From NCBI RefSeq assembly GCF_014205215.1, contig NZ_JACHNC010000001.1:6134501-6198500 (forward strand): DNA of 64,000 bases, in the 5' to 3' direction. This stretch comes from Actinoplanes lobatus (GTDB taxonomy: Bacteria > Actinomycetota > Actinomycetes > Mycobacteriales > Micromonosporaceae). The number at the start of each line of letters is the position of its first letter. Within the stretch, counting starts at the first letter, position 1. This document shows positions 13,223 through 33,974 of the stretch, in pieces. The notes beneath the pieces were generated by a model, which was not told the origin of the DNA, did no database searches, and saw only the letters and a list, made by a program, of their open reading frames with translations. A program made the position numbers and the translations under genes.

Positions 13223-13747
13223 ATGGCCGAGTTCGAAGTCAACGCGCACCGGTTCGACCCGTACAAGAACTTCAAGTTCCTGGTCCGGTGGGACGGGCGC
13301 ACGGTAGCCGGGATCAGCAAGGTCAGCCCGCTCAAGCGCACCACCGAGGTGATCAAGCACCGGGACGGCGGCTCGCCGAGCACCCCGGTGAAGTCGCCGG
13401 GCCGCTCCGAGTTCGAGGGCGTCACCCTGGAACGGGGCGTCACCCACGACCCGGAGTTCGACCGCTGGGCCAACAAGGTCTGGCAGGTCGGCGCGGGACT
13501 CGGCGCCGAGGTGTCGCTCGCCGACTTCCGCAAGAACATCATCATCGACGTGCTGAACGAGGCGGGGCAGGTCGCCGTCTCGCACAAGCTGTACCGGGCC
13601 TGGCCGAGCGAGTACTCGGTGCTCGGCGAACTCGACGCCAACGCCAACGCGGTCGCCATCCAGAGCCTCAAGCTGGAGTGCGAGGGCTGGGAACGCGACT
13701 ACGAGGTGCCGGAGCCGGTCGAGCCGTCGTTCACCAACCCGGCCTGA
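13223..13747 (+). CDS. eCIS inner tube protein (T4 gp19-like)
   Basis: Forms the inner tube inside the sheath, 174 aa. Family features: FEVNAHRFDPYKNFKFLVRW start, VAGISKVSPLKRTTEVIKHR, FEGVTLERGVTHD, FRKNIIIDVLNEAG, and KLYRAWPSEY before LKLECEGWERD. Length is slightly above the usual 145-165 aa because of a short Pro/Glu tail. Its stop overlaps the next start (ATGA at 13745-13749), implying translational coupling. Only one tube gene is visible in the cluster. Confidence 0.95.
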   Translation: MAEFEVNAHRFDPYKNFKFLVRWDGRTVAGISKVSPLKRTTEVIKHRDGGSPSTPVKSPGRSEFEGVTLERGVTHDPEFDRWANKVWQVGAGLGAEVSLADFRKNIIIDVLNEAGQVAVSHKLYRAWPSEYSVLGELDANANAVAIQSLKLECEGWERDYEVPEPVEPSFTNPA

Positions 13748-14472: not shown

Positions 14473-15136
14473 GCCGACTCCGGACTACTTCGACCGGCTG
14501 CTGGCCCGCCACACCGGGCGCGGCGACACCGGTGGGACGCGGCCCCGGCTGCCCGGCCCGTTCGAGCGTGGCGAGGCCCGCTGGCAGGAGGTGGAGATGC
14601 CGCCGCTTCCGGCCGCGCACCCGGTCGTCCGCGAATCCGGCGATCGGCCGCCGACCGCACCGGTCCGTGTCGAGCGGCATACCGAGATCCGTGTCGAGCG
14701 GCCGGATCCTGGATCGGCCGATCCGGCACCGGCTCCGCTGCGCCGGTCCACCGAGATCCGGTCGGCTGAACCCGCTGCGGTTCGCGAGACTGTCACCCAG
14801 GTCATCTCGGGCGCGCCGGTCCGGCCCGCTGTCACCGCGCCGCAGCGTCCCGCGCCGGCGACCGCGCCGGCGGATCGTCCCGTGGCTGGTCCGGCTCCCG
14901 TCATGCGGCCGGCGGCCGGTGTCGCCCCGGTCGTGGCCGCACGGCGCGAAACCGCGCTGCCGCCGGCCTCCCGCCGCCGGGCGCGTCCCGCCGAACCGTC
15001 GGTGCACGTCACGATCGGCCGCCTCGAAGTCCGTGCCACCGCGCCCGAGCGCGCGCCCGCCCGTACCCCGCGAAGTGGCCGGCCGTCTCCGGTCGTGAGC
15101 CTGACCGACTACCTGGCGGGGGAGGGACGCCCGTGA
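14465..15136 (+). CDS. Pro/Ala/Arg-rich eCIS adaptor-like protein
   Basis: A 223-aa protein, mostly disordered. The N-terminus (DYFDRLLARHTG) and especially the C-terminus are the recognisable parts: VHVTIGRLEVRA, a Pro/Arg linker, then PSPVVSLTDYLAGEG. A short IGRLEVRA...LxDYL module recurs in eCIS clusters next to the DUF4255 gene; I rely on memory for that. The centre has an imperfect RHTEIRVERPD / RSTEIRSAEP repeat. It is coupled on both sides by start-stop overlaps. Likely a structural linker or assembly peptide; function unproven. Confidence 0.6.
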   Translation: MPEPTPDYFDRLLARHTGRGDTGGTRPRLPGPFERGEARWQEVEMPPLPAAHPVVRESGDRPPTAPVRVERHTEIRVERPDPGSADPAPAPLRRSTEIRSAEPAAVRETVTQVISGAPVRPAVTAPQRPAPATAPADRPVAGPAPVMRPAAGVAPVVAARRETALPPASRRRARPAEPSVHVTIGRLEVRATAPERAPARTPRSGRPSPVVSLTDYLAGEGRP

Positions 15137-15741
15137 GCAACGCGCTGGCGATCGCGACCGTCACCCAGGCGCTGGCGATGCAGATCGAACGGAACCTGCC
15201 ACCGGAGATCGACTTCGCGGTCAACGTGCAGACCCGGCGGCCGCACACCGAACCCCCGAACGAGCCGTCCGTCACGGTCTTCTGCTACCAGGTCACCCCG
15301 AACGCGGCCCTGCGCAACGCCGACCTGCCGGTCCGGGCCTCCGACGGCACCCCGATCGGCCGGGCCGCCGCGGCGCTCGACCTGCAATACCTGATCAGCG
15401 CGTACGGCGAGGAGAACGAACTCGTCGGCCAGCGGCTGATCGGCAGCATCGTCCGGACCCTGCACGAGCACCCGCTGCTGCCCGCCGACGTCATCGAGGA
15501 GGCCGTTCGGCAGCCCTACCTGAACGGCAGCGACCTGGCCGCCACAGTGCAGCGCGTCCGGTTCTCGCCAACCGCCATGGACATCGAGGAGACCTCCAAG
15601 CTCTGGGGCATGTTCCACCAGACCCCGTACGTCCTGTCCGCGGTCTACCAGGCGTCCCTTGTCCTGATCGAGGGGCGTGAGACGCCGCCGCAGCGGCCGC
15701 CGGTGCGGGAACCGTCGATCCGGGTGACCGCTCGTGAATGA
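15133..15741 (+). CDS. DUF4255 / Pvc16-type tail terminator protein
   Basis: A 202-aa DUF4255 protein. In Afp/PVC-type particles the family member caps the distal end of tube and sheath. Signatures: VTQALAMQIERNLPP, VTVFCYQVTPNAALRN, LDLQYLISAYG, LVGQRLIGSIVRTLHEHP, and LWGMFHQTPYVLSAVYQASL. GTG start at 15133 overlaps the preceding stop (GTGA); its own stop overlaps the ATPase start by 8 bp. The presence of this gene next to the AAA+ ATPase is one of the best eCIS markers in the window. Confidence 0.92.
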   Translation: MSNALAIATVTQALAMQIERNLPPEIDFAVNVQTRRPHTEPPNEPSVTVFCYQVTPNAALRNADLPVRASDGTPIGRAAAALDLQYLISAYGEENELVGQRLIGSIVRTLHEHPLLPADVIEEAVRQPYLNGSDLAATVQRVRFSPTAMDIEETSKLWGMFHQTPYVLSAVYQASLVLIEGRETPPQRPPVREPSIRVTARE

Positions 15742-17608
15742 CCCCGCGGCACTCGCCGACGCCGTCCGCTGGGTCCTGACCCGCCTCGACGCGCACGCGG
15801 GCGGGGCGGACCCCGAGCCACCGCCCGGCACCGGCCCGGTGACGCTGCGGGTGCTCGTGGACCGCTTCGGGCTGAGCGCCTTCGAACGGGCCGTGCTGCT
15901 GCTGGCCGCCGCCGTGGAGATCGACCCGACCACCGGCAGCCGCTGCGCCGCCGCGCACGGCGACCCGGAACGCGCCTACCCCACCTTCGGGCTGGCGCTG
16001 GCCGCGCTGCCCGATCCGCACTGGGACGCGCTCACCCCGGTCGCGCCGCTGCGCCGCTGGCGGCTCGTCGAACCGGCCGACGAGACCCGGCTCACCGCCT
16101 CCCCGCTGCGCATCGACGAGCGGGTGCTGCACTTCCTGGCCGGAACGCCCTACCTCGACGCCCGGCTGCACGGCCTGCTGCGGCCGGTGCCGGAACCCGC
16201 CGGCGTGGCGCCCGGCCACCGCACGGCCGCCCAGCGGGTCGCCGTCGGCATCACCGAACCGCCACTGCGGATCGAGCTGGTCGGCGGCACCCGGCGGATC
16301 CGGTCGGACATCGCCGCCGCGGCGGCGGCCCAGCACGACCTTTCCCTGTACGCGATGAGCGCCGCCGACGTGCCCACCGACCCGGCCGACCGGGACCGGC
16401 TGGCCCGGCTGTGGCAGCGCGAGGCCGTACTGCTGCCCGCCGCGCTGCTGCTCGAAGTGGACACCCTGGAACGCGACCGGACGGCGGCCGCCGACGCGTT
16501 CGCCGCCGCCGCGGCCGTACCCCTGATCGTCGGCGGCGACGAGCCGCGCCGCGACGGCGGGCCACGGGTGACCGTCCCGGACCTGACCGACGACGAACAG
16601 CTCGGACTGTGGCGGGACGCCTTCGCCGACGTGCCCGACCTCGGCGACGAGCAGCTGCGCGACCTGGTCGCCCAGTTCCAGCTACCGCCGCACACCGTCC
16701 GGTCGGTGGCCGCCGCGGTCCGCCGGGACCTGGCGGACGCCCGGATTCCCGCCACCGAGGTGGCCTGGCGGGCCAGCCTCGACGAGGCGCGGATGGGCCT
16801 CGACGGACTCGGCCGCCGCATCGGACCCCGCGCCGGCTGGGCCGACCTCGTACTGCCCGAACGGCAGGTCGCCGTCCTGCGGGAGATCATCGCCCAGGTT
16901 CGCCGGCGCGCCACCGTCCACCAGGAGTGGGGCTTCGCCCGGACCCTGCGGCGCGGGCTCGGCGTCACCGTCCTGTTCGCCGGCGGCTCCGGCACCGGCA
17001 AGACCCTGGCCGCCGAGGTCATCGCCGGTGAACTGGGGCTCGACCTGTTCGTCATCGATCTGTCCCAGGTGGTCAGCAAGTACATCGGCGAGACCGAGAA
17101 GAACCTGCGGGCCGTCTTCGACGCGGCCGAGCACGGCGGGGCGCTGCTGCTGTTCGACGAGGCCGACGCGCTGTTCGGCAAACGCAGCGAGGTCAAGGAC
17201 AGCCACGACCGGTACGCCAACCTGGAGGTCAGCTACCTGCTCATGCGGATGGAGGCGTACCGGGGACTGGCGGTGCTCACCACCAACATGAAACAGGCGC
17301 TAGACCCGGCGTTCATGCGCCGCATCCGGTTCGTCGTCGACTTCCCGTTCCCCGGCGAGCGGGAACGGGCCGAGATCTGGCGGCGGGTGCTGCCCGCGCA
17401 GGCGCCCGCCGCCGGGCTCGACCCGCACCTGCTGGCCCAGCTCACCGTGGCCGGCGGGTCGATCCGCAACATCGCGTTGTCCGGGGCGTTTCTCGCCGCC
17501 GACGAGGGCGACAAGCTGCGGATGCGACACCTGCTGGCGGCCGCCCGCACCGAATACCTCAAGCTCGAACGCTCCCTCACCCCGGGCGAGGTGCGCGGAT
17601 GGGTCTGA
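15734..17608 (+). CDS. eCIS AAA+ ATPase (Afp15/Pvc15-like)
   Basis: ATPase thought to act in particle assembly, loading or release in eCIS. The N-terminal 350 residues are a helical domain; the AAA+ module follows with Walker A GGSGTGKT (417-424), Walker B LLLFDEADAL (471-480), sensor 1 TTN (516-518), and an arginine finger in FMRRIRF (about 528-533). A complete active site is present. GTG start at 15734. It is 624 aa, similar to other eCIS ATPases. Its stop overlaps the next start by 10 bp. Confidence 0.93.
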   Translation: MNDPAALADAVRWVLTRLDAHAGGADPEPPPGTGPVTLRVLVDRFGLSAFERAVLLLAAAVEIDPTTGSRCAAAHGDPERAYPTFGLALAALPDPHWDALTPVAPLRRWRLVEPADETRLTASPLRIDERVLHFLAGTPYLDARLHGLLRPVPEPAGVAPGHRTAAQRVAVGITEPPLRIELVGGTRRIRSDIAAAAAAQHDLSLYAMSAADVPTDPADRDRLARLWQREAVLLPAALLLEVDTLERDRTAAADAFAAAAAVPLIVGGDEPRRDGGPRVTVPDLTDDEQLGLWRDAFADVPDLGDEQLRDLVAQFQLPPHTVRSVAAAVRRDLADARIPATEVAWRASLDEARMGLDGLGRRIGPRAGWADLVLPERQVAVLREIIAQVRRRATVHQEWGFARTLRRGLGVTVLFAGGSGTGKTLAAEVIAGELGLDLFVIDLSQVVSKYIGETEKNLRAVFDAAEHGGALLLFDEADALFGKRSEVKDSHDRYANLEVSYLLMRMEAYRGLAVLTTNMKQALDPAFMRRIRFVVDFPFPGERERAEIWRRVLPAQAPAAGLDPHLLAQLTVAGGSIRNIALSGAFLAADEGDKLRMRHLLAAARTEYLKLERSLTPGEVRGWV

Positions 17609-17877
17609 CCGGAGACGTACGGGTCGAGATCGGCGAACTGGTGCTCGACGGATTCGGGCCATCCGTGGACGTGGACCTGGTATCGGCCGCGTTCACCACT
17701 GAACTTGTCCGGCTCGTGCGCGCGTACGGCGTACCGCTGGCTTCGGGACGTGAGCGTGAGCTGGACGCCCTGGCCGGATTGCCGCCGATCTCCCCGGCGG
17801 TCTCGCCGGAGCGTCTCGGGATCACGCTGGCCCGGTCGGTGCACGCCGGGCTGAGCGGGCGCGGGAGGCGGCGATGA
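17599..17877 (+). CDS. Small conserved eCIS protein, 92 aa
   Basis: A small soluble protein, MGLTGDVRVEIGELVLDGFG, followed by an AFTTELVRLVRAYGVP helix and a basic tail. An IGELVLxGF motif with a following helix is seen in short proteins placed between the ATPase and DUF4157 genes of eCIS loci, to my recollection. The ATG overlaps the ATPase end by 10 bp and the stop overlaps the DUF4157 start by 4 bp (ATGA), so it is fully coupled. A chaperone or cargo-adaptor role is a guess from position only. Confidence 0.6.
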   Translation: MGLTGDVRVEIGELVLDGFGPSVDVDLVSAAFTTELVRLVRAYGVPLASGRERELDALAGLPPISPAVSPERLGITLARSVHAGLSGRGRRR

Positions 17878-20800
17878 GCGCCACCCGCGCCACACCGGAC
17901 CGGCGGTCGAAACAGGACGACCGGCGCCGCCGGCGTGGCCGGAACACGTCGACACCGTCGCCCAGGAACATCGTCAGCGGGGCCGGGCAGCCACTCGACC
18001 TCAGCGTGCGCCGGGCCGCCGAGGAGCGGCTCGGGTACGACTTCGGGCAGGTCAGGCTGCACACCGACCGGGACGCCGACGCGCTCACCGGGCTGCTCGG
18101 CGCGGACGCGGTCGCCGTCGGACGGGACGTCTTCTTCCGGGCCGGCGCCTACCAGCCGGGCACCACCGGCGGGCAGCGGCTGCTCGTCCACGAACTGCTG
18201 CACACCGTGCAGGAGCCGTACGGGGCCGGGGCGTTGCGGGCCGGGCGTGCGGCCGGGGCGGTGAGCCTGCCCGCGGAACCCGCCGAACAGGCCGCCGAAC
18301 GCGCCGCGCGGGAGTCCGTGGAGCCGTCCGGCGCGGCGGCCGTGGAGCTGTCCGGCGCGGCGGCCGTCGACGCGGAGGCGCCGCTGCCCGCCTGGATGCG
18401 GTACGCGACGGTCACCGCCGACCAGATGCGGGTCGAGCGCCTGGATCCGGCCACCCTGCCGGACCGGTTGGCGGCGACCATCGTGCGGTCCCTGCGCGGG
18501 GACCCCGCCGACTGGTCGCATCGGACCCGCACCCAGTTGGCGCGGTTGCCGGAGGAACTCGTCGAGCCGGTCCTCGACCGGCTGGAGAACCGGTTGCTCG
18601 GCCCGGAGTACGAGCGGGTCCTCGACCTGATCGACGAGGTCGACGGCGAGATCCCGGAGCCGGAGGCGCACGCCGCGCCGCTGCCCGAGCCCGACTCGGC
18701 CGAGGATCTCCGGTACGCCCGTGAGCTGGACCGGCGGCGTGCCGATGAGCAGCGGGAGGCCTCGGGACGGCCGGAGCCCGCGCCCGGTCCGGAGAAGGAG
18801 CAGTACGGGACGCCCGGCGGGCCAGCCCTCACGCCCGGGCCGTTTCCCGCTGCCCGACCGAATCCGGCCGCCCGGCCGGATTCCGGTGGGCGACACGATC
18901 CTGCCGCCCGTGCTGATACCGGCAACCGGTCGGATTCCGGTGCCCGGCAGGAACCCGCCTCTGGCTTTCCCAGTTCCTCTGGCTTGTCCGGGTCCGCGGC
19001 GAAGGGCGAGTCCGCGTCGGCTGCTCAGAGTGGATCCGCGGCCTCGCGGGAGAAGGCCGCCGCCGAGAAATCCGGTGGGGAGACGGCGCAGCGGGAGGTG
19101 CCCGTCGCCAGTGCTGAGGGGTCGGCGGCCAGGAACCGGCCCGAGGCCGCCCAGGCCCGGGCCGCGGGGAGGCAGGTGCGGCCGGAGGAACGGTTCGAAC
19201 CGGGGCGGACGGCCGGCACACCGGCGACCGTGGGCAAGGACACCCAGATGTCGTCGGCGGTGGGGACACTCGATCCGCTCCGCAACCAGGACCTGCCGGA
19301 GCTGCGGGAGACGGAACCCGAATCGCCGCCGCCGACCAACTGGTCCGAGGTGGAGGTCGGTGGCGGGCCGTCCAGCGCCTGGGATGTCAGCCTGCGACCG
19401 GACGACTTCCTGCCGGCTCAGGACCCGGACGTGTCCGCGATCCCGACCGTCGACATGATGGATCCGGCGTCGAGCGTCGAGCCGTCGATGCCGTCGTTCC
19501 CGGCAGCGCCGATCACCCGTGCCGACCGGGTGCAGGCCGAGCGGGAGGCGGAGGACGCCGAGGAGGAGCAGGCCGAAGCGGAGTTGGCGGAGCCGGAGCC
19601 GCTTCTTGCCGACGATCAGTCCGGGCCGGACGTGGTGGGGCCGGCTCTGTCGCTTTCGGACCTGGTCGCCGGGATACCGTCCGCGACCGGTGTCGCCCTG
19701 CGGGACCCGGCGAGTGGCGCCGACCCGAGGAGCGGGCCGGTCGACGCGCAGACCACCGTGCAGGAGGTGGCCGGGCGTTCCGAGGGCGGCACTCGCGAGA
19801 CTGAGCCGGCCGCGAAAGAGGCGAAAGGTACGTCCGCTGCGGGTGACAACGTCGCGGCGGCGCCCGAGAAGGCAAGCCAGCAGGCGGTCGGTGGGCAGGC
19901 GACCGCACCGGCCACGGAGTCCTCCAGCCGGTCGGCCGGCGGCCCGGCCGCTGAACCCGGGACGACAAGCGAGCCGTCGACAGCACCCGCCGCCGGGACG
20001 GGGTCGCCGTCGAGCGCGCGGCCCGCCGTACCGGAAATGTCTTCTCGTGAGCCCGCGCCGACCCCGCCCGCGCCCGATGCACCTGCCTTGGCCACCGATC
20101 CGGCCTCGCGGGAAGCGGCGCCTGGCGCCGCCCCGCCATCAGTGCGCGCCGAAAACGCTGGCGGCGGGAGCGCTGGCGGCGGGAGCGCGGGCGCCAGTGG
20201 TGGAGGCGGCGGAGGCGGGAGCGCGGCCGCCCCCGTCAAGCGCAAGGACGAATCCGCGCCCGCCCCGGACCTGTCCACCGCATCCCCCGAAGGGGGCCTG
20301 GCCACCGCCGCCACGCTGAAACCGCACCGCGCCCTGGAAGCGATGGGCGGGGTGGGCCGCGCCGCCGACCGCAATGTCGGCGACGAGCACAAGAATCTGG
20401 CCACCGCCCCGCCCGCCATGCAACGCCCGGCCGGCGCACCGCAGACGCTGTCCGGCCCGCCGAAGGCCGACACGGCGGTGCGGTACTCGACGGATCCGGC
20501 CCAGCGTTCCACCGCGCCGGAGAGTGGGAAAGCCGAGGTCACCGGCGCGCAGGAGCCGGCCGGGCCGATCGAGGCGGAGCAGGCCGAGGAGCCGGGCGGC
20601 TGGGACACCTTCAAGATGGCGCTGGGTTTCGGCATCGGCAAGGTCGCCTCGTGGCTGGGTTTTGAGGTGGACGCCCAGGAACTGGCCGCCAAGTTCGCCG
20701 GGCTGCCCACCAGGGACGAGGCGCTCAAGCAGGCGATGGCCGGGAACGCGCCGGGCGTACAGATGAGCGGCGCGGCCGGGCAGACGTCGGCCGACCAGGG

Positions 20801-23800
20801 CGCCGCCGTCGACGACAAGGGCCGGCAGACGGTGAGCGCCGCCCGCGAGGACGCCGGCCGGGGGATGGGCGAGGACCAGGTCTACCCGGACGTGCCGCCG
20901 GAGACGATGGAGGCGGCGGTGCCGGGCCGGCCGGGTGGCGCCCCGGTTCCGGCCGTCGGCGCGCCGACCGGTGCGGTGCCCGCCGAGGCGGCGTCCAAGG
21001 TGGCCGAACATGACAACGGCCCCCGGATCCAGACAGCGTTCCAGCAGGGCGGTCAGGGCATGGCGCAGGGCCGCCAGGACCGGGACCGTGGTTTCCGCGA
21101 CTCGCAGGCACGCCACCGGGCCGAGGTCACCGCCGAGGTCGCGACCAACACCGAAAACCAGGCGGGGGTACGGGGTGGCGCGCTCGACGACGTGAATTCG
21201 CAGCGTGCCGCCTGGCGTACCGATCAGGACCGGGAGCTGTCGAAACTCGGCACGAAGAAGGCGGACCGGCAGGCGAAGGTCCGTAAGGACGTGCAGGACC
21301 GGGAGAAGAAGGCCGACGACGACGTCACCACCGAGAAGGACAACAGCGACAAGAGGATCCGTGCCGAGGCGACCCGGGCGGAGCAGGACGCCGAGCGGCA
21401 GCGCGACTCCGCCGTACAGAACTCGGGCAACTGGGTGGCCAAGGCCTTCGAATGGCTGAAACAGAAGGTCATCGAGATCAAGAACGCGATCGTACGGGTG
21501 ATCCGGGCGGCCCGGGACGCGGTCGTCGGCTTCATCAAGAACTTCAAGTCGACCGTCGAGCGGTGGATCAACGAGGCCCGCACGTTCATCGTCGACGCGA
21601 TCACGAAGCTGATCACCGAGCTGATCGAGTTCGCCAAAGCCATGGTGCAGGCGGTCATCGAACTGGCCAACCGCATCCGGCGACTGATCACCGACCTGAT
21701 CAAGGCGGCGATCGCCCTGGTCAACCGGCTCGCCGCGATGCTCAAGCAGATCATCAAGGATCTGCTCGACGCGCTCGGCAAACTGCTCGCCGAGATTCTG
21801 CGGATCCTGCTGAAAGCCCTGATGGACGTCATCAAGGCGGTCGTGGACGCGGTCAAGCAGGTCCTCGCGGCGGCCTCCCAGTTGCTGGGCGCGTTGGGCA
21901 AGTTCATGTTCATCGCCATCGACTTCCTGTCCGATCCCGGCGGCTGGCTGGGCGGCGCCAGGAATTCGGCCGTGGACGGTGCGAAGAACCACCTGTTCCG
22001 CGAGGTCAAGTCGGCGGTCAAGGCATGGTTCCAGCAGAAGGTCGAGGAGATCCTCGGCGTCGGCAGGGCGGTCATCGACGTACTGGTCAAGGGCGGTTTC
22101 ACGCTCGAGAAGATCGTCAAGGAGACGTGGGACGCGATCCTGCCCATGCTCCCGGTCATCATCGGCGAGATCGTCATCACCAAGGTCATCGCCAAGCTGA
22201 TCCCCGGCGCGGGCTGGGTGATGGCCGTCATCGACGCGATCCGGACGGCGATCGGCTCGCTGGGCGCGATCCTGCGGGCGGCCGGCGCGGTCCTGTCCTG
22301 GCTGCTGGCGGTCCGGCAGGGCAGCGCCGGGATTCTGTTCGCCAAGGCGGTCGCCGCCGGCATCGTGGCCCTGCTGGAACTGGCCTACGAGGCGCTGGTG
22401 AGCGGCATCGGCAAGTATGTCGCCAAGGTCGGCAAGCGCCTCAAGGCCGTCGCGCAGCGGCTGGCCAGGGGCAAGAAGCGCGACACGCCGGGCGCTCCGG
22501 GCGACGGCGGCCGACCCGGCCGGGCACCGGATCGGCCCACCACCGGGACGCGGGGCGCCGATACCCCGCGTGCGGCGCCCCGGGGCGGCCTTCCTGGGCG
22601 GCCCGCCGCCACGCCGAGGCCCCGTCCCGCCGCCGGGCCGAGACCCGACCGGCGGCCCCCGGCCGGCCCGGGACCCCGATCGACGGGTGCCCCGGATCGC
22701 CCCGGTAGCCGGTCGGCCGGTGCTCCGGACCGGCCCGGAACCCGATCCACCGGTGCTCCGGACCGTCCCGGGGCAAGGCCCGCCGGTGCTCCGGATCGGC
22801 CGGGGACGAGTCCTTCCGGAACCTCGGATCGGCCCGGAACCAGCCCGGCCGGCGCTGCGGACAGGCCGTCGGCTGCTTTGCCAGCCGGGTCGACGCCGGC
22901 CCCTGCCAGGTCGCCGGGCCGGGTGCCGCCCGCCACCGCAAAGAACCGCGACGGCACTCCTAGGACCGCCGCGGATCAACGGCCGGACACCCGCCCCACC
23001 CCGCCGCCGAGACCGCGGCCCGAGGCGAAGGCCCCGGCGAAGCCGTCGCCGGGTCCGAAGGACGCCGACCCGGCGAAACCGAAGAACACCGACCCGGACC
23101 GCCCCAGGGACACCGATCCGTCCCGGTCGAAGCCCGACGGCACGGGTGCCCCGAAACCGGGACGGGACGGCGACCGCCCGGGCGGCCCGCGTGACCGCCG
23201 GGATGCCGATCGACCGGACCGGGATCCGTCGTCCAGGCCCTCGCCGGAGCGGAGTCACTCGCCGGATCGCAAGGACCGGGAGCGAAAGAAGGACGAGGAG
23301 TCCAAGGACGAGCGGCTGCGCCGGATCGTGGCCCGGATCCAGCCGAAGGTGAGACGGCTCGTCGACCGGGGAGTGCTCGGCCGCCCGCTGCGGGCCGCGC
23401 TCTCCGGGTTGCGCCTGTGGTACCGCCTCACCGGCCTGGACACCGCCGGGCAGCCCGACTTCGGGATCACGGCGGTGCTGAATCCGCGGCGGGATGTCCA
23501 GCGCGGATGGGTGCTCACCGGCTCCGATCTGCGCCGGCTGGTCACCGAGGTGTCCGAGGAGATGCTCCAGCGGCCGGACGTGCAGGACGCGGCGCGGAGG
23601 ATGCGCATCACCATGGCGGTGGCCGGGGTCAATGCCGAGGAGCAAGCACTGGAGATCGCGGAGTCCCGCGACATCCCGGGCGCGGTCCGGTACCTGCAGA
23701 ACCGGGGAACCGGCTTGGAGCTGGCCCGCCCGGGCGGGCCGAGCCGGGTCGCCGGTCCGCACCGGCCGCGTGAGGGGCGTGGGCGACAGCCCGGAGCCAT

Positions 23801-24443
23801 GGAGACGTACCGGGTCGGGCCCGACCGGGACCCGGTGTCCGAGGAGAACCGCGTGGGCGCCACGAATGCGCTGACGCAGGGAGTCGGCACCTATCCGGAG
23901 ATATTCCGGGTGATCCAGCGTATGCGTCATGGGGACCGGGCCATCGCGCACGCGCTGCGGCAGTATTCGAGGACGAGGCGATTTCCGGGCGGATTCGACG
24001 CTGACCAGCGTGAGTTCCTGCGAGCCCTGCACTGGCTGATTTTCGTCCGCGAATCGGTGCGCGACCGGGCGAATCTCGGATTCGCGCCGATGATGGTGCG
24101 GCTCATCGAGCGAGGTCAGCTCAGCTGGGAGGAGGCCTTCGTCCAGTTCGAGGCCAGGGAGAGCGGCCGGAGGGGTGGCCGGGGGTCCTTCCCGATGTCG
24201 ATGCGGCTGGCGGCAAGCGCTTCGCGTGGCATCGCGGCCCGGATCCGGAGCCGGCGGCGCAGGCCGAGCAACGCGTTGCTCAATCGGAGGGAGCTGGCGC
24301 GCAGGCAATTCGAGTTGAGTGAACGGTGGATGCGTGCTGTCACCAATGGACAGGGGATTTACGGTCCCACCGCATCGCAGGCCATTCAGAACGGGCGTGA
24401 GCAGGTGCAGCGCTTCATGCTGAGATACTACGGTCTCGACTAG
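17874..24443 (+). CDS. Giant DUF4157 protein, candidate eCIS cargo/tape-measure
   Basis: A 2189-aa multidomain protein. Residues 32-114 are a DUF4157 (eCIS core) domain with an HELLH metallopeptidase-like motif at 106-110. Roughly 260-760 is low-complexity Ala/Ser/Pro/Glu; 761-785 is Gly-rich; 1119-1185 a Lys/Asp/Glu/Arg coiled coil; 1186-1356 a run of amphipathic Ile/Leu/Lys helices; 1423-1519 a hydrophobic, membrane-insertable stretch. A Pro/Arg linker carries six 11-aa repeats (1603-1668). Residues 1812-2189 form an unrecognised, basic, helix-rich domain. DUF4157 proteins are known eCIS-associated toxin or cargo proteins. No separate tape-measure gene is visible, so the helical centre might serve as one. 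The 3' end has lower GC than its neighbours. Start is coupled to the preceding stop. Confidence 0.8.
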   Translation: MSATRATPDRRSKQDDRRRRRGRNTSTPSPRNIVSGAGQPLDLSVRRAAEERLGYDFGQVRLHTDRDADALTGLLGADAVAVGRDVFFRAGAYQPGTTGGQRLLVHELLHTVQEPYGAGALRAGRAAGAVSLPAEPAEQAAERAARESVEPSGAAAVELSGAAAVDAEAPLPAWMRYATVTADQMRVERLDPATLPDRLAATIVRSLRGDPADWSHRTRTQLARLPEELVEPVLDRLENRLLGPEYERVLDLIDEVDGEIPEPEAHAAPLPEPDSAEDLRYARELDRRRADEQREASGRPEPAPGPEKEQYGTPGGPALTPGPFPAARPNPAARPDSGGRHDPAARADTGNRSDSGARQEPASGFPSSSGLSGSAAKGESASAAQSGSAASREKAAAEKSGGETAQREVPVASAEGSAARNRPEAAQARAAGRQVRPEERFEPGRTAGTPATVGKDTQMSSAVGTLDPLRNQDLPELRETEPESPPPTNWSEVEVGGGPSSAWDVSLRPDDFLPAQDPDVSAIPTVDMMDPASSVEPSMPSFPAAPITRADRVQAEREAEDAEEEQAEAELAEPEPLLADDQSGPDVVGPALSLSDLVAGIPSATGVALRDPASGADPRSGPVDAQTTVQEVAGRSEGGTRETEPAAKEAKGTSAAGDNVAAAPEKASQQAVGGQATAPATESSSRSAGGPAAEPGTTSEPSTAPAAGTGSPSSARPAVPEMSSREPAPTPPAPDAPALATDPASREAAPGAAPPSVRAENAGGGSAGGGSAGASGGGGGGGSAAAPVKRKDESAPAPDLSTASPEGGLATAATLKPHRALEAMGGVGRAADRNVGDEHKNLATAPPAMQRPAGAPQTLSGPPKADTAVRYSTDPAQRSTAPESGKAEVTGAQEPAGPIEAEQAEEPGGWDTFKMALGFGIGKVASWLGFEVDAQELAAKFAGLPTRDEALKQAMAGNAPGVQMSGAAGQTSADQGAAVDDKGRQTVSAAREDAGRGMGEDQVYPDVPPETMEAAVPGRPGGAPVPAVGAPTGAVPAEAASKVAEHDNGPRIQTAFQQGGQGMAQGRQDRDRGFRDSQARHRAEVTAEVATNTENQAGVRGGALDDVNSQRAAWRTDQDRELSKLGTKKADRQAKVRKDVQDREKKADDDVTTEKDNSDKRIRAEATRAEQDAERQRDSAVQNSGNWVAKAFEWLKQKVIEIKNAIVRVIRAARDAVVGFIKNFKSTVERWINEARTFIVDAITKLITELIEFAKAMVQAVIELANRIRRLITDLIKAAIALVNRLAAMLKQIIKDLLDALGKLLAEILRILLKALMDVIKAVVDAVKQVLAAASQLLGALGKFMFIAIDFLSDPGGWLGGARNSAVDGAKNHLFREVKSAVKAWFQQKVEEILGVGRAVIDVLVKGGFTLEKIVKETWDAILPMLPVIIGEIVITKVIAKLIPGAGWVMAVIDAIRTAIGSLGAILRAAGAVLSWLLAVRQGSAGILFAKAVAAGIVALLELAYEALVSGIGKYVAKVGKRLKAVAQRLARGKKRDTPGAPGDGGRPGRAPDRPTTGTRGADTPRAAPRGGLPGRPAATPRPRPAAGPRPDRRPPAGPGPRSTGAPDRPGSRSAGAPDRPGTRSTGAPDRPGARPAGAPDRPGTSPSGTSDRPGTSPAGAADRPSAALPAGSTPAPARSPGRVPPATAKNRDGTPRTAADQRPDTRPTPPPRPRPEAKAPAKPSPGPKDADPAKPKNTDPDRPRDTDPSRSKPDGTGAPKPGRDGDRPGGPRDRRDADRPDRDPSSRPSPERSHSPDRKDRERKKDEESKDERLRRIVARIQPKVRRLVDRGVLGRPLRAALSGLRLWYRLTGLDTAGQPDFGITAVLNPRRDVQRGWVLTGSDLRRLVTEVSEEMLQRPDVQDAARRMRITMAVAGVNAEEQALEIAESRDIPGAVRYLQNRGTGLELARPGGPSRVAGPHRPREGRGRQPGAMETYRVGPDRDPVSEENRVGATNALTQGVGTYPEIFRVIQRMRHGDRAIAHALRQYSRTRRFPGGFDADQREFLRALHWLIFVRESVRDRANLGFAPMMVRLIERGQLSWEEAFVQFEARESGRRGGRGSFPMSMRLAASASRGIAARIRSRRRRPSNALLNRRELARRQFELSERWMRAVTNGQGIYGPTASQAIQNGREQVQRFMLRYYGLD
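22680..22877 (+). repeat. Six 33-bp tandem repeats (GAPDRPG units)
   Basis: Six successive 11-residue units with consensus (S/P)(T/A)GAPDRPG(T/S)(R/S) inside the DUF4157 gene; the last two are diverged (GTSDRPG, GAADRPS). They lie in a Pro/Arg-rich linker between the hydrophobic segment and the C-terminal domain and probably act as a flexible spacer. Confidence 0.85.
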
Positions 24444-24465: not shown

Positions 24466-25041
24466 ATGGCTGAGATGAAGGCTCGAATGGTGTTCAAGAA
24501 TGTGGACGCCGAACTGGAGGTCGACCAGATCTCCTTCGATGACGGTTGGGACATGCTCCAGGTCGAGGACCCCGCCTCGGACACGTTCGTCAACGTCTGG
24601 GCGACCGCGGACGGCTCCGTCGAGATCCATCTCGTCAAGGACCCGATGGTGGGCCTGGACTATCTGACCCTGTACGGCGACGACGTGGCGGACGTCCAGC
24701 TCGACATCGAGGAACGGTCGTCCTTCTGGTCCACCGGGGAAGCGCTGCGGGAGATCGGGCGGGCCACCGACCGCGACGACCGGCTGCGGGCCGTCTACAC
24801 GGCGGCGCTGTCCGCCACCGACGCCGAGAGCGACGCCGTGGCGGAGGCGTTCCGCACGGTCAGCCGGGACGACGATCCCGGGATCCGGCTGTCGGTGGTG
24901 GTCGCGACGGGTTATCTCCAGACCCCCGGCCTCGTGGAGATCGTCGCCGGGCTGGCCGCCGACGATCCGCACGACACCGTCCGGGAGAACGCCCGGATCC
25001 TGCTGGAGGGGATCGAACGAGAACGTGGAGGTGGGTGGTAG
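24466..25041 (+). CDS. Unknown acidic protein beside the DUF4157 gene
   Basis: A 191-aa acidic soluble protein that I do not recognise. The N-terminal half is beta-rich (MKARMVFKNVDAELEVDQIS, DGSVEIHLVKD, ADVQLDIEERSSF); the C-terminal half is a HEAT-like helical segment (DPGIRLSVVVATGYLQTP, DTVRENARILLEGIERE). It starts 23 bp after the DUF4157 stop with an AGGGGAA Shine-Dalgarno site, and has no counterpart among standard eCIS structural proteins. Position and acidity against a basic effector domain suggest an immunity protein or a cargo chaperone. That is inference. The first 20 codons share the lower GC of the preceding gene's end. Confidence 0.6.
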   Translation: MAEMKARMVFKNVDAELEVDQISFDDGWDMLQVEDPASDTFVNVWATADGSVEIHLVKDPMVGLDYLTLYGDDVADVQLDIEERSSFWSTGEALREIGRATDRDDRLRAVYTAALSATDAESDAVAEAFRTVSRDDDPGIRLSVVVATGYLQTPGLVEIVAGLAADDPHDTVRENARILLEGIERERGGGW

Positions 25042-25680
25042 ATGAGCACGTTCGCCGACATTCCCAAGGCGATCCGGGCATCGATCGTGGTGATGGATCC
25101 GGGCGGCGCGGCACCGCGGCGGGTCATCGTCATGCAGTTCAATCCGGACTCGCTGGAACGCAGCATCCAGCCGCAGGCGGCCGGGGGCACGTCCGGTGCG
25201 AGCGGAACCGGGACCGACGGTGACCGCAACGAGGCGCTGCGGCTCAAGGGCCCGGCCGAGGAGCAGTGGAAGTTCACCGCTGAGATCGACGCCACCGATC
25301 AACTGGACGTCGCCGCGCCGGACGGCATCCACCCGCAACTGGCCGCGCTGGAGATGCTCGTCCAGCCGACGGTCGCCCAGTTGCGGGAATCCATCGACGC
25401 GGCCCGCCGGGGCGCCATCGAGGTCAACCCGATCGAGATGCCGCTGACCCTGTTCACCTGGGGCGGCAAGCGGATCATGCCGGTCCGGCTGACCGAGTTG
25501 TCGGTCAACGAGCAGGCGTTCGACGTCGACCTCAACCCGATCCGCGCGTCGCTGAGCATCGGCATGAAGATCCTCACCGTCAGCGACCTGCCGTTCGGGC
25601 ATCCCGGCGGCGACTTCTACCTCGCCCACCTGGCGATGAAGGAACAACTCGCCGCCCGTGGCAGCAGGATCGGAGGCTGA
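25042..25680 (+). CDS. eCIS tube-baseplate adaptor (Afp7/Pvc7 N-domain-like)
   Basis: A 212-aa protein of the CIS tube-adaptor family, placed between tube and baseplate hub. Signatures: VVMDPGG, VIVMQFNPDSLERSIQP, a disordered Gly/Thr loop, RLKGPAEEQWKFTAEIDATD, VNPIEMPLTLFTWGGKRIMP, LTELSVNEQAFDVDLNPIRA, and SIGMKILTVSDL. In Afp7 this domain is joined to a LysM; here the LysM-like part is encoded by the next gene, 2 bp downstream. ATG immediately follows the preceding stop. Confidence 0.85.
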   Translation: MSTFADIPKAIRASIVVMDPGGAAPRRVIVMQFNPDSLERSIQPQAAGGTSGASGTGTDGDRNEALRLKGPAEEQWKFTAEIDATDQLDVAAPDGIHPQLAALEMLVQPTVAQLRESIDAARRGAIEVNPIEMPLTLFTWGGKRIMPVRLTELSVNEQAFDVDLNPIRASLSIGMKILTVSDLPFGHPGGDFYLAHLAMKEQLAARGSRIGG

Positions 25681-26029: not shown

Positions 26030-27161
26030 CGAACCCTTCGGGCGCGGGCCGCTGCACCTCGATCTCAGCATGGGCCGCGACCTGCCCCGGCCGGTGCCGC
26101 CGGAGGTCGGCGACGCGCTGCTGTCCGCGCAGATCACCGCGACCGCGGGCGAACGCAGCGGCTTCCAGCTCGCCTTCGACCTCACCAAGAACGGGCCGAT
26201 CGCCCGGCGCTACCTGCCGGAACGCTTCTTCCACCCGAGGACGCGGGTGGTGCTGAGCACGACGCTGCGCGGCGCTACGACGGTGCTGTTCGACGGGCTC
26301 GTCACGCGGCAGGAAGTCGGCGCCAGCAACCGTCCCGGCCAGTCCACGCTGACCGTCACCGGCGAGGACCTGACGCTCGTCATGGATCTGGACGAGCGCG
26401 CCGAGGGCTTCCCCAACCTGGCGCCCTCGCAGCGGGCCGAGCTGATCCTGCGCCGGTACGCCGGGTACGGCATCACGCCCCGGGTGATCACCGAGCAGGT
26501 GCCGCAGCCACCGGACGCGGCCCAGCGCATCGACTTCCAGAGCGGCACCGACCTGCGGTACCTCAACCAGCTGGCGCGCGCCAACGGCTACACCTTCTAT
26601 CTGGAGCCGGGGCCGGAGCCGGGCCGGTCGACCGCCTACTGGGGACCGCAGATCCGCACCGGGGTCCGGCAGCACGCGCTGTCGGTCAACATGGACGCGA
26701 ACTCCACCGTCGACCAACTGACTTTCGCCTACGACGGGCTGGCCCGCGAGGAGCCGACCGCTCTCGTGCAGGATCCGGCCACCCGCGAGATCGTCCAGCT
26801 CGCCCAGCCGCCGATCGACCCGCTGCGCCCGCCGCTGGGCCGGGATCCGACCGAGGCGCTGAAACGGCCCAGCCTCCGCAACACCGCCAAACTCGGCACC
26901 GCCCAGGCGCAGGCCGAGCTGCTGGCCCGGGCCGCCACGTCGGCCGACGCCATCGCCGGGTCCGGGTCGCTCGACGTCACCCGGTACGGCTTCGTGCTGC
27001 GCCCCCGCGAACTGGTCGGCGTGCGCGGTGCGGGCGTGGCGTACGACGGCGACTACTTCGTCACCTCGGTCACCCACACGCTGCGGCCGGGGCAGTACCT
27101 GCAGAACTTCACGATCTCCCGCGAGGGAATGGTCGCGCGCGGCGACACCGTGCGGCCCTAA
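26022..27161 (+). CDS. gpD/VgrG N-domain-like baseplate hub
   Basis: A 379-aa phage late control D-type protein forming the trimeric hub below the tube (T4 gp27-like). Typical elements: DALLSAQITATAGERSGFQL, GLVTRQEVGASNRPGQSTL, VTGEDLTLVMDLDE, RAELILRRYAGYGI, RIDFQSGTDLRYLNQLARAN and a C-terminal VTRYGFVLRPRELVGVRG barrel segment. TTG at 26022 has a GGAACGGGG site 8 bp upstream; TTG at 26016 is an alternative. In Afp8 the hub and spike are one chain; here they are two adjacent genes. Confidence 0.88.
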   Translation: MADEPFGRGPLHLDLSMGRDLPRPVPPEVGDALLSAQITATAGERSGFQLAFDLTKNGPIARRYLPERFFHPRTRVVLSTTLRGATTVLFDGLVTRQEVGASNRPGQSTLTVTGEDLTLVMDLDERAEGFPNLAPSQRAELILRRYAGYGITPRVITEQVPQPPDAAQRIDFQSGTDLRYLNQLARANGYTFYLEPGPEPGRSTAYWGPQIRTGVRQHALSVNMDANSTVDQLTFAYDGLAREEPTALVQDPATREIVQLAQPPIDPLRPPLGRDPTEALKRPSLRNTAKLGTAQAQAELLARAATSADAIAGSGSLDVTRYGFVLRPRELVGVRGAGVAYDGDYFVTSVTHTLRPGQYLQNFTISREGMVARGDTVRP

Positions 27162-27171
27162 GGAGCATCAG

Positions 27172-27693
27172 ATGCCGGAACCGAGCAACCGTTTCCTCGG
27201 CAAGTACCGGGGCCGGGTCGTCGACAACGCCGACCCCCGGCGCATCGCCCGGCTGCGGGCCGAGGTGCCCGACGTGCTGGGCCGGGAGTGGTCCACCTGG
27301 GCGCTGCCGTGCCTGCCGTTCACCGGTGAGGGGTTCGGGCATTTCAGCATGCCGGCGGTCGGCGCCGGTGTCTGGATCGAGTTCGAACAGGGCGATCCCA
27401 GCCACCCGATCTGGTCCGGCACCTGGTACGGCGACGCCGCCGAACTGCCGCCGGACGCCCGTACCGCCCAGGAGGCCGAACCACCCACCCAGCCGGTCGT
27501 CATCCAGACCCGGGCCGGCCACAAGGTGGTCGTCTCCGACACCGCCGGTGGCGGAATCCTGTTGCGGGCCGGCGGAGCGTCGGTGCGGATCGACGGCGGC
27601 GGCGTCCGTCTCGAGGACGGCCTCGGCGGCGTGCTCACGGTCTCCGGCGGCCGGGTCGACGTGAATGGCCAGATCTTCCCGGGGAGGGCCTGA
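27172..27693 (+). CDS. gpV/gp5-like spike protein
   Basis: A 173-aa OB-fold plus beta-prism spike that caps the hub. OB part: FLGKYRGRVVDNADPRRIAR, LRAEVPDVLG, WALPCLPFTG, MPAVGAGVWIEFEQGDPSHP and IWSGTWYG. Beta-helix tip: VVIQTRAGHKVVVSDTAGG, ILLRAGGASVRIDGGG and similar short strands ending in VNGQIFPGRA. ATG at 27172 follows an AAGGAG site. No separate PAAR tip gene is visible, so the tip may be the end of this beta-prism. Stop overlaps the gp25 start (ATGA). Confidence 0.9.
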   Translation: MPEPSNRFLGKYRGRVVDNADPRRIARLRAEVPDVLGREWSTWALPCLPFTGEGFGHFSMPAVGAGVWIEFEQGDPSHPIWSGTWYGDAAELPPDARTAQEAEPPTQPVVIQTRAGHKVVVSDTAGGGILLRAGGASVRIDGGGVRLEDGLGGVLTVSGGRVDVNGQIFPGRA

Positions 27694-28055
27694 TGCGCAT
27701 CGACATCGCCGTCCCGTTCCGGTTCGGGGCCCGCGGCCGGACCGCCACGGCGACCCACGACGAGCACGCCCGCGACCTGATCGAGCAGCTGCTGTTCACC
27801 AGCCCGGGGGAGCGGGTGATGCGGCCCGACTTCGGCTGCGGCCTGCTCGACCTGGTGTTCGCCCCGACCGCCCCGGAGCTGGTCGCGGCGCTGGAGCTGT
27901 CGGTGCGGGCGAGCCTGCAACGCCTGCTCGGCGATCTGGTCGAGGTGCGGGCGCTGGACATGTCCGTCACCGGCGGCATCGTGCGGGTCGAGTTGCACTA
28001 CACCGTGCGGCGGACCGGCAGCGAGCGCAAGGACGTCTTCGAGGGGCGATCATGA
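27693..28055 (+). CDS. gp25-like baseplate wedge protein
   Basis: A 120-aa GPW/gp25 family protein, which nucleates sheath assembly on the baseplate. Signatures: the central LIEQLLFTSPGERVMRPDFG with the conserved PGERVMRP turn, CGLLDLVFAP and LVAALELSVRASLQRLLGDL. Length is typical. Start overlaps the spike stop. Its stop overlaps the first start codon of the 77-bp tandem repeat (ATGA at 28052-28055). Confidence 0.93.
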   Translation: MRIDIAVPFRFGARGRTATATHDEHARDLIEQLLFTSPGERVMRPDFGCGLLDLVFAPTAPELVAALELSVRASLQRLLGDLVEVRALDMSVTGGIVRVELHYTVRRTGSERKDVFEGRS

Positions 28056-28209: not shown

Positions 28210-28286
28210 GCGAGCTTGCGAGTGAATCATTCAGCTCAGTCTTGAACTCATTGCGACGCCGGAGCGCAGCGGAGGTGGCGCAATGA
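28206..28286 (+). CDS. Mini-ORF 3 of the 77-bp repeat, 26 aa
   Basis: GTG-initiated copy with the same peptide as mini-ORF 2 (both nucleotide differences are silent). Its stop overlaps the ATG of the baseplate J gene, so translation of J may depend on coupling through the array. Confidence 0.35.
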   Translation: MSELASESFSSVLNSLRRRSAAEVAQ

Positions 28287-33800: not shown

Positions 33801-33974
33801 GCGGTGGCGGCCGCGGCCGGAATCCCGCTGACCGAGCTGGCCCGCCTCAACCCCGACATCACCGATGTCCGGCCGCTCCCGCCCGGCCGGACGGTGACCG
33901 TCTTCCGCGGTCTCCGGCCGGCGCAGTTCGCCGTCCTCGCCGCCGACGGCCTGACCCTGACGGAGATCGCATGA
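30828..33974 (+). CDS. Baseplate J-type protein 2 with C-terminal LysM-like domain
   Basis: A 1048-aa second putative baseplate assembly protein. N-terminal block: DPAIALLDAAAVVADLLTFH, ERIGDEGYLRTARDRRSLG and LLGRLVDYRPRPGLAADT. C-terminal J block: GRTTVTFGDGVHGARLPTGQ, TNPVPATGGADPDGPGLARR and LSTRDYADFTRSRAGIGRA. The middle is a variable beta-rich region with Val/Thr-rich strands (about 360-480). Residues 975-1029 look like a LysM fold (VAAAAGIPLTELARLNPDI, then LPPGRTVTVFRG). GTG start at 30828. Overlaps the next gene by 4 bp (ATGA). Confidence 0.88.
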   Translation: MDHGTFLSDMLDHPALRRLTVRTTDDPAIALLDAAAVVADLLTFHGERIGDEGYLRTARDRRSLGLLGRLVDYRPRPGLAADTHLAYRLDPRSQPGGADADVLIPRGSRSRSVPAASGEPPQTFETDADLVARAAWNDLAVRRQRPDPLTTDDLTRRAEILVAGTDTLLVVGDRLLFVFGDDRRLIPVARLRIDRERDVTAIGLPGSPPPSLPELIAQLRRRLAEPRPNGTLVTETDRSVLAPLDADLDQINTTEGYAERLADPIQRLTEAAAVAGTRQDIADWCERLAAALVDQAARARDLGGVHIEEPTGAGLAAVAALTGLFALRVTATPFGATAPLQPVRDQQGRVINVTDWPLPGATLTTTRIVFDTAGRVPVRAEFVHAQPDGTVQHGENLPVAETTVDLGPGRVTVTGTAERVTVNLRPGLPEHELTVTTPTAERRVTVTVAGQSFDLNPGDTRPVTVDGQVIAIRYPGALEIAVATVPDESLRTVLSLDAVHNTVTPGSPIVVERPGRPPLITRVAEARTATYAQFGITGRGTRLVLDDAWLGEGDVLLSQIRDTTIYAGGEPLRPAGQPLAEDVHGDRIELDDRHDALRPGRILAVTGEHTEIVTIAAVGHGPANTTIVLAGPLAHRYRRDTVRILGNVVPASHGETRDDPIGSGDATAVHQTFTLWQEPLTWLPSGDPVGARPALEVRVDGLLWQLADSLDGRGPAERVYVLGNTPDGRTTVTFGDGVHGARLPTGQENIRVRYRFGAGPEGNLPAGRITQPVTRPLGVIGVTNPVPATGGADPDGPGLARRRIPLAVATLDRLLSTRDYADFTRSRAGIGRATAREVFDGRRRVVHVTVAAVDDVPLDPGSDLLPALRAALAAHGDPRLPVRVEVRELVALRLVAGVKVAAGHAFEIVAPRLGRALLDRLGYRGRDLARDAYLSEVMAVADRTPGVDYVDVAVFAPTDGPGQPLPVVPARPARYVEQIHRVTGPDPRTLTAVAAAAGIPLTELARLNPDITDVRPLPPGRTVTVFRGLRPAQFAVLAADGLTLTEIA

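What the first reader, a model, noticed from the sequence alone, without database searches (positions are those of the whole stretch)
17874..24443. 2189-aa DUF4157 protein that may fuse tape-measure and cargo
Seen: DUF4157 with HELLH, long disordered spacer, coiled coil, about 170 residues of amphipathic helices, a hydrophobic stretch, a repeated Pro/Arg linker and a separate C-terminal domain in one chain. No other gene in the operon looks like a tape measure. Known: DUF4157 is linked to eCIS toxins/cargo. Inferred: the helical centre could set tube length or form a pore, with the C-terminal 380 residues as delivered effector. I do not know a described protein with this layout.
Basis: partly seen in the sequence, partly recalled or inferred. 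Interest (0 to 1): 0.85.

Follow-up and report, generated by a model that had tools for sequence, protein, structure and literature searches.

The report
Injection-machine protein with swappable toxin tip
This giant bacterial protein looks like a known kind of cargo for a phage-tail-like injection machine, and comparison with relatives suggests that its probably toxic end is swapped between bacteria together with a neighbouring gene that may protect the producer.

The parts
17874..24443 (+). 2189-aa Tme-type CIS effector/carrier protein (whole ORF)
   Evidence: 477 proteins share its centre
17991..18215 (+). eCIS core domain DUF4157/PF13699, residues 40-114, HELLH 106-110
   Evidence: E 1.9e-24
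18234..20993 (+). long low-complexity, probably disordered spacer, residues 121-1040
   Evidence: composition; low conservation between most homologues
20994..21428 (+). charged, probably coiled-coil stretch, residues 1041-1185
   Evidence: composition; alignment A3; coiled coil itself inferred
21429..21932 (+). amphipathic, probably helical stretch, residues 1186-1353
   Evidence: distance from the W[RQ]TEQD-type motif to the hydrophobic block 240.8 +- 0.5 aa in the 38 homologues where the motif was found
21933..22403 (+). conserved hydrophobic (probable membrane-inserting) block, residues 1354-1510
   Evidence: hydropathy peaks; 156.1 +- 0.4 aa in 66 homologues, ends extrapolated to the model ends
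22404..23297 (+). Pro/Arg-rich linker with 33/66-bp tandem repeats; its end is where DNA similarity between swapped clusters tends to stop
23298..23489 (+). 64-aa junction ('pre-tip') domain, residues 1809-1872, ...WYRLT..L...LNP; no Pfam match
   Evidence: profile found in 55 of 72 proteins examined; no Pfam hit
23490..24440 (+). C-terminal tip, residues 1873-2189; E-x-x-R family, no Pfam match; proposed toxin domain
24051..24062 (+). invariant E-x-x-R of the tip family (E2060, R2063)
   Evidence: 29 of 29 aligned members; the only two invariant columns of the 25-sequence alignment A6
24466..25041 (+). tip-linked 'slot' gene, 191 aa, HEAT_2-like; proposed cognate immunity protein
   Evidence: ends directly at the tube-initiator start
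25042..25680 (+). CIS tube initiator (PF19266)
   Evidence: E 3.6e-6, 27.2 bits against a cut-off of 27
11252..13201 (+). contractile sheath (PF04984, PF17482)
13223..13747 (+). inner tube (PF06841)
15133..15741 (+). Pvc16-type terminator (PF14065)
15734..17608 (+). AAA ATPase, Pvc15-type position (PF00004 with PF22977)
27028..27693 (+). spike OB-domain protein (PF04717)
27693..28055 (+). gp25 baseplate wedge (PF04965)
28283..30826 (+). baseplate J (PF04865)
30828..33974 (+). second baseplate-J-like protein with weak LysM match
   Evidence: both matches below the curated cut-offs

Best explanation
The ORF is the cargo of an actinobacterial contractile injection system and a member of the Tme type: an N-terminal DUF4157 loading/baseplate domain, a long spacer and helical/hydrophobic carrier that lies in the tube and is expelled into a membrane, and an exchangeable C-terminal toxic tip. 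The tip and the next gene form one toxin-immunity cassette: the 191-aa HEAT-like protein (24466-25041) neutralises the E-x-x-R tip in the producer. The cassette recombines between CIS clusters, between the Pro/Arg linker and the tube initiator. Shown: gene order, carrier conservation, tip exchange, class-level linkage of tip and next gene, and a SUKH-4 immunity family in the same position in one class. Inferred: loading, membrane insertion, toxicity of this tip, neutralisation by the next gene.
For: Carrier against tip: window versus a congeneric genome is 60-90% identical in every 50-residue block from 800 to 1549 but 22-30% in each block after 1900. Tip search: 3 of 299 other genomes of the family match, only over its first 68-93 residues. 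68 loci; junction domain in 55 of 72 proteins; tips in 15 clusters among 71. Actinoplanes P0005 and P0006, each 83% identical over the searched centre, carry other C-termini (sequences): P0005 nuclease-like by eye, P0006 a divergent E-x-x-R type (aligned). Next gene: in 66 of 68 loci the tube initiator was found, and in all 66 an ORF lies between it and the tip. 8 slot clusters among 67; of 2016 pairs, 402 of 403 tip-related pairs are slot-related (one exception, L050/L065), against 185 of 1613 tip-unrelated pairs. A recount puts all of the latter inside the E-x-x-R class and finds 0 slot-related among 1536 pairs of different classes. Tip class and slot class each need 19 changes on the carrier tree of 64. 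Cassette edges at DNA level. Slot gene of L024 SUKH-4, 2.9e-17; of L070 SUKH-1, 7e-4, below cut-off. Co-elution with spike and tube initiator, toxicity and nuclease activity of Tme (PMC11126660).
Against: Only 1 of 8 slot families (L024) matches a known immunity family above its cut-off; the window's HEAT_2 match is 27.6 bits against a cut-off of 27.7. Within a class the slot gene tracks the carrier better than the tip (partial rank correlations tip-slot 0.30 and 0.18 against core-slot 0.49 and 0.47), so fine-scale co-evolution is not shown. The one-to-one match of eight classes needs eight tip clusters merged as one E-x-x-R class, a merge made partly after seeing their shared slot family; unmerged, ARI is 0.76 and tip clusters need 28 changes on the tree. 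hhalign did not link clusters 6, 8 and 10. Three of the eight classes are singletons. Tme's sequence was not fetched, so membership rests on the paper's description.
Confidence: 0.72

Rival explanations
1. True tape measure with a fused effector: residues 1-1510 descend from a phage tape measure and set the tube length, and the C-terminus is delivered. This can hold together with the cassette reading.
For: Longest ORF of the window, upstream of tube initiator and baseplate genes; no tape-measure match among the other operon ORFs scanned. Homologues P0002 and P0003 match phrog_1272 (tape measure) at 3.5e-15 and 1.1e-12 forward, with no match to it at 0.01 when reversed. DUF4157-to-hydrophobic-block distance 1280.7 +- 45.4 aa (CV 3.5%, n=66), linker after it CV 17% (n=50). 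1281 aa at 1.5 A per residue (helical rise, recalled) is 192 nm, near the ~200 nm CIS-like particles seen in a S. davawensis tme mutant. Of several stop edits tried in tme only the one just before the tip succeeded.
Against: For the window protein itself the reversed sequence matches the best tape-measure family better (2.7e-11) than the real one (1.4e-8), while some families do better forward. S. lividans particles without the tape-measure-like Sle1/Sle2 show no apparent structural defect. A non-contractile S. coelicolor CIS is homogeneous at ~230 nm in a cluster without a typical tape measure. Length constancy may only reflect ancestry.
Confidence: 0.42
2. The gene 24466-25041 is a tip-specific loading adaptor or chaperone, not an immunity protein.
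For: It lies between effector and tube initiator, changes with tip class and has HEAT-like repeats, which commonly bind proteins (general knowledge). A partner of a CIS effector can be encoded next to it, as Sle2 is next to Sle1.
Against: The same position holds a SUKH-4 immunity protein in L024 (2.9e-17) and a weak SUKH-1 match in L070; a downstream, near-abutting position is typical of immunity genes (recalled); the M. eburnea Sle1-type effector has a protective downstream gene.
Confidence: 0.2
3. The window tip works like a ribosome-inactivating protein, an RNA N-glycosidase.
Confidence: 0.3

Closest known systems
Tme (BN159_7576), tapemeasure-related effector of Streptomyces davawensis CIS (PMC11126660)
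   Same: N-terminal DUF4157, mostly disordered, coiled coil, hydrophobic helices, basic segment after them, separate C-terminal effector domain, largest ORF of the cluster, placed just upstream of tube initiator (BN159_7578) and spike genes with one locus-tag number in between
   Different: Tme's tip is an EndA-like nuclease; the window's tip is the unrelated E-x-x-R family. The main text of that paper has no occurrence of immunity, antitoxin or BN159_7577. Relation judged from the paper's description; sequences not compared.
Sle1/Sle2 of Streptomyces lividans and the Micromonospora eburnea effector-immunity pair (PMC13277306)
   Same: Tape-measure-like carrier with diverse C-terminal domains; DUF4157 partner interacts with the tube initiator; one member has a protective gene downstream
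   Different: There DUF4157 is a separate protein and the pair lies upstream of the sheath gene; here it is fused and the gene lies between ATPase and tube initiator
eCIS-associated toxins with DUF4157 (PMC8213781, PMC11297309; passages seen)
   Same: DUF4157 at the N-terminus, linker sometimes over 1000 aa, toxin domain at the C-terminus
   Different: PMC8213781 reports that immunity genes could not be identified next to most of its verified toxins; here a tip-linked next gene is found in all 66 loci in which the tube initiator was found
Cgo1/Cgo2 of AlgoCIS (PMC8894135, passages seen)
   Same: DUF4157 cargo proteins with differing C-terminal domains, located in the tube lumen
   Different: 'tape measure' does not occur in that paper's main text; no hydrophobic carrier block was looked for there
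Ribosome-inactivating proteins (PF00161)
   Same: Glu and Arg three apart as invariant residues; weak overall fold match
   Different: No sequence match to PF00161; fold match below significance

Membership tests
Tme-type CIS effector (definition in PMC11126660) | DUF4157 in the N-terminal region | tested here: met
   PF13699 residues 40-114, E 1.9e-24
Tme-type CIS effector (definition in PMC11126660) | Relative length of the ORF (largest of the cluster) | tested here: met
   2189 aa, longest ORF of the window
Tme-type CIS effector (definition in PMC11126660) | Conserved synteny just upstream of tube initiator and baseplate genes | tested here: met
   tube initiator found downstream in 66 of 68 loci and the AAA ATPase upstream in 63 of 68
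Tme-type CIS effector (definition in PMC11126660) | Remote homology to phage tape-measure proteins (stated for Tme) | tested here: inconclusive
   window: reversed control matches better; homologues P0002 and P0003: forward clearly better than reversed
Tme-type CIS effector (definition in PMC11126660) | Carried by CIS particles | not testable with these tools
   needs mass spectrometry
Tape measure protein | Length sets tube length | not testable with these tools
   only length constancy measured
Polymorphic toxin-immunity system | Conserved carrier with exchanged C-terminal domains | tested here: met
Polymorphic toxin-immunity system | Adjacent gene that changes with the tip | tested here: met
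   402 of 403 tip-related pairs; 0 of 1536 pairs of different classes
Polymorphic toxin-immunity system | Adjacent gene belongs to immunity families | tested here: inconclusive
   SUKH-4 in one class, SUKH-1 below cut-off in another, no immunity family for the other representatives scanned
Polymorphic toxin-immunity system | Adjacent product neutralises the tip | not testable with these tools
   bench assay needed
Ribosome-inactivating protein | Match to the PF00161 sequence model | tested here: not met
   20 members of A4 scanned, no PF00161 match at E<=0.1
Ribosome-inactivating protein | RIP fold | tested here: inconclusive
Ribosome-inactivating protein | Catalytic Glu and Arg three residues apart | tested here: met
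   29 of 29; the alignment of the most distant members is uncertain, and position in the RIP active site was not shown

The most novel reading that the evidence does not exclude
Tme-type contractile injection systems are a whole polymorphic toxin-immunity world of their own: a constant tube-filling carrier whose tip and private antitoxin are exchanged as one cassette of about 1.5-2.4 kb between the Pro/Arg linker and the tube initiator. In this genome the cassette is a new family of RIP-like rRNA N-glycosidase with a HEAT-repeat antitoxin. This would explain how producers survive carrying these toxins, and predicts that BN159_7577, if it sits in the same slot, protects against Tme.
Probability: 0.28. 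Interest if true: 0.8.

Novelty: new variant of a known kind. Interest (0 to 1): 0.64.

Why it matters
PMC8213781 (passages) calls the lack of immunity genes beside most antibacterial eCIS toxins an intriguing mystery. For the Tme type the answer may be a gene in a fixed position inside the structural operon. That makes protection, target range and cassette exchange directly testable, and gives a list of unnamed toxin and antitoxin families. The reversed-sequence controls also show that for such helical proteins a tape-measure profile match needs a control before it is read as descent: the window fails it, two homologues pass.

Tried and rejected
Undescribed layout: rejected, Tme has it. Tape-measure descent from the window's own PHROGs matches alone: not accepted; a later control on two homologues supports descent, and I raised the tape-measure rival from 0.35 to 0.42 for that. 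Tip as EndA-like nuclease as in Tme: rejected for the window (no PF13930 match); the tip of L011 matches it, P0079 below the cut-off, and others are labelled so. Constant gene after the tip: rejected, relatives of the HEAT-like protein found by tblastn in 7 of 68 loci. First fold of the tip with 3 sequences: poor, pLDDT 47, not used. RIP relatives by PF00161 in genomes: 0 of 396, 0 of 30, 0 of 392; no control genome rang, so absence is not shown. Families not listed by VIA-align 2 are not excluded. Relatives of the slot gene elsewhere in the own genome: none besides itself. NCBIfam gave nothing for the tips and slot genes scanned beyond matches far below cut-off. Alignment A5 mixed fragments with two full proteins and was replaced by A6. 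Literature searches for tip-linked immunity in Tme-type systems; none of the papers opened described it in the parts I saw; subscription papers and preprints are not held.
Full report
What is there. The ORF 17874-24443 (+) encodes 2189 aa without interruption. It lies in an operon with sheath, tube, Pvc16-type terminator and AAA ATPase upstream and tube initiator, spike, gp25 and baseplate-J proteins downstream. The genome is 10.4 Mb in two contigs. Three genomes that the tool calls 'same genus' have contigs of the same length as named records: Paractinoplanes durhamensis, Nucisporomicrobium flavum and Mangrovihabitans endophyticus. The closest centre sequences are from Actinoplanes at 83% identity. 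The organism itself is not named; a Paractinoplanes-like actinomycete is inferred.

Layout. DUF4157/eCIS core with HELLH, a 920-residue low-complexity spacer, a charged stretch, amphipathic sequence, a hydrophobic block, a Pro/Arg linker with tandem repeats, then a C-terminal domain.

It is a known type. Tme of S. davawensis (PMC11126660; outline, part 1 of 3 of the Results, the three sections on the effector and the Discussion read) has DUF4157, about 70% predicted disorder, coiled coils, transmembrane helices, a basic segment and a C-terminal nuclease. It was enriched with spike and tube initiator in a pull-down of the tip protein, and overproduced Tme is toxic to E. coli through its nuclease. 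The paper defines tme-like genes by relative ORF length, N-terminal DUF4157 and synteny; the window ORF meets these. Sle1-type effectors (PMC13277306; abstract and three sections read) are related in plan.

Tape measure or not. The protein matches several PHROGs tape-measure families (best E 4.2e-8). As a control I scanned residues 1022-1540 forward and reversed: best forward 1.4e-8, best reversed 2.7e-11, largely the same families; some, such as phrog_5448 and phrog_6090, do better forward. For the window alone the matches therefore need no more than amphipathic composition. The same control on 500 residues of P0002 and P0003 came out otherwise: phrog_1272 at 3.5e-15 and 1.1e-12 forward, not at all (E<=0.01) reversed, where the best matches are phrog_305 at 3.2e-5 and 1e-7. 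So the family does carry a directional tape-measure signal. In 66 homologues (63 loci, P0002, P0003 and the window) the DUF4157-to-hydrophobic-block distance is 1280.7 +- 45.4 aa (range 1107-1343), while the linker after it varies by 17% and the tip by 10% (n=50 each). Block ends were extrapolated to the model ends, so the very small spread of the hydrophobic block is partly by construction. Descent from a tape measure is plausible; a ruler function is compatible but not shown. Particles of S. lividans without Sle1/Sle2 show no apparent structural defect, and a non-contractile S. coelicolor CIS has a homogeneous length of ~230 nm in a cluster without a typical tape measure (PMC10066040, passages).

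Exchangeable tip. A search with the C-terminal 378 residues in 300 genomes of the family matched 4, one being the own genome; the other three matched only the first 68-93 residues, inside ORFs of 2014-2274 aa. Comparison of full proteins showed a conserved carrier and a loss of similarity in the tip. A pattern scan of the species-genome collection with the centre (alignment A3) gave 68 loci, 62 named Streptomyces and one each Paractinoplanes, Nucisporomicrobium, Mangrovihabitans, Kitasatospora, Wenjunlia and Cellulomonas. With the window and P0002-P0004 this made 72 proteins, some cut by contig ends; 55 carry the 64-residue junction domain. The 17 without it are 16 nuclease-class proteins and the truncated L041. 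Tips of 71 (L041 dropped; for the 16 without junction domain the last 320 residues were used) fall in 15 single-linkage clusters of 28, 16, 5, 5, 3, four of 2 and six of 1. Among the tips scanned, Pfam names three kinds: Endonuclea_NS_2 (L011, 1.6e-6), BMT5-like methyltransferase (L070, 2.8e-32) and DUF7587 (P0104, 8.3e-8); the tips of L015, L024, L046, L049 and L059 have no match above cut-off.

The linked next gene. In the window the gene after the tip encodes a 191-aa HEAT-like protein and abuts the tube initiator. By tblastn it recurs in 7 of 68 loci. L019, L059 and L070 seem to hold two genes there. Clustered by blastp alone, the 67 slot proteins (66 loci and the window) form 8 clusters. 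Of 2016 pairs among the 64 with a measured carrier, 403 have related tips and 402 of these have related slot proteins, the exception being L050/L065; of 1613 pairs with unrelated tips 185 have related slots. In a recount with a slightly different length rule these are 184, all within the E-x-x-R class; over all 67, 0 of 1536 pairs of different classes and 638 of 675 pairs of the same class are slot-related. The E-x-x-R class joins tip clusters 1, 4, 6, 7, 8, 9, 10 and 13, which share slot cluster 1. Its merge was made partly after seeing that; independent support is the E-x-x-R kept in 29 of 29 aligned tips and hhalign links of cluster 1 with 4, 7, 9 and 13, two of them over only about 60 residues; 6, 8 and 10 were not linked. 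Merged, eight tip classes match eight slot clusters without exception; three are singletons. Unmerged, ARI is 0.76. On the carrier tree (64 rows, 31 of 61 inner branches well supported, with a long-branch warning) tip class and slot class each need 19 changes, the 15 unmerged tip clusters 28. L055 and L056 have almost the same carrier (end branches 0 and 0.016) but an E-x-x-R and a nuclease tip.

Cassette edges. Six pairs with close carriers were compared at DNA level. In the four with different tip classes (L055/L056, L020/L026, L013/L014, L059/L061) the flanks are 78-92% identical. In the first three, similarity stops 57-231 bp before the junction domain counted in the first-named locus and 9-58 bp before it in the second; in L059/L061 it stops inside the domain. 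It resumes within 20 bp of the tube-initiator start of the first-named locus (coordinates). Of the two same-class pairs, L060/L078 also lose nucleotide similarity over this stretch, and L049/L054 resume earlier, inside the slot gene.

What the slot gene does. The slot gene of L024 is a SUKH-4 immunity protein (2.9e-17); that of L070 matches SUKH-1 below cut-off (7e-4); the window's matches HEAT_2 at 27.6 bits (cut-off 27.7); the slot genes of L011, L015, L046, L049, L059 and L055 match no Pfam family and L028 only weak HEAT. Eight representatives have no strongly hydrophobic segment (19-residue maxima 0.62-1.41), so they are probably cytoplasmic. Within classes, slot divergence follows the carrier more than the tip, so linkage is shown at class level only. 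Immunity is the best reading; an adaptor is the main rival.

Mechanism proposed. DUF4157 holds the protein at the tube initiator/spike (interaction shown for relatives); the chain fills the tube; contraction expels it; the hydrophobic block enters a membrane; the tip acts in the cytosol; the slot protein protects the producer. All steps after gene order and exchange are inferred for this genome.

Novelty. The protein is a new member of the Tme type. The tip family and the tip-linked slot gene with defined cassette edges are, as far as my searches go, not described for it. The Tme main text has no occurrence of 'immunity' or 'antitoxin'; its supplements were not seen.

Noticed in passing
L010:10143-12197 (G000:C1 near 7,902,208): A second eCIS-core (DUF4157) protein of 684 aa, E 1.3e-26, in the same genome; among the seven neighbouring ORFs scanned none matched a structural CIS family; just before it an AAA/LuxR-type regulator ORF.
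   Followed up: partly
window:17874-24443, residues 1022-1540: Tape-measure profile matches of the window fail a reversed-sequence control while those of homologues P0002 and P0003 pass it; such controls seem worth adding to remote-homology claims for helical CIS effectors.
   Followed up: yes
L070:12263-13078: CIS tip that matches a BMT5-like rRNA methyltransferase family (2.8e-32), with a weakly SUKH-1-like gene after it.
   Followed up: no
L076 (Cellulomonas cellasea): Carrier homologue with an E-x-x-R tip but no HExxH, and no tblastn match (E<=1e-4) to any of the 15 window ORFs used as queries within the fetched 21 kb.
   Followed up: no
L030-L040, L042, L044, L069, L071, L072: Sixteen nuclease-class carriers lack the junction domain by the profile used and form one branch of the carrier tree.
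   Followed up: partly
L019, L059, L070: The slot between tip and tube initiator is long (about 1.2-1.3 kb) and seems to hold two genes.
   Followed up: no
L049, L053, L054, L063, L068: Tip class 3 is followed by an unusually large slot gene of 405-414 aa; the one of L049 has no Pfam or NCBIfam match.
   Followed up: no
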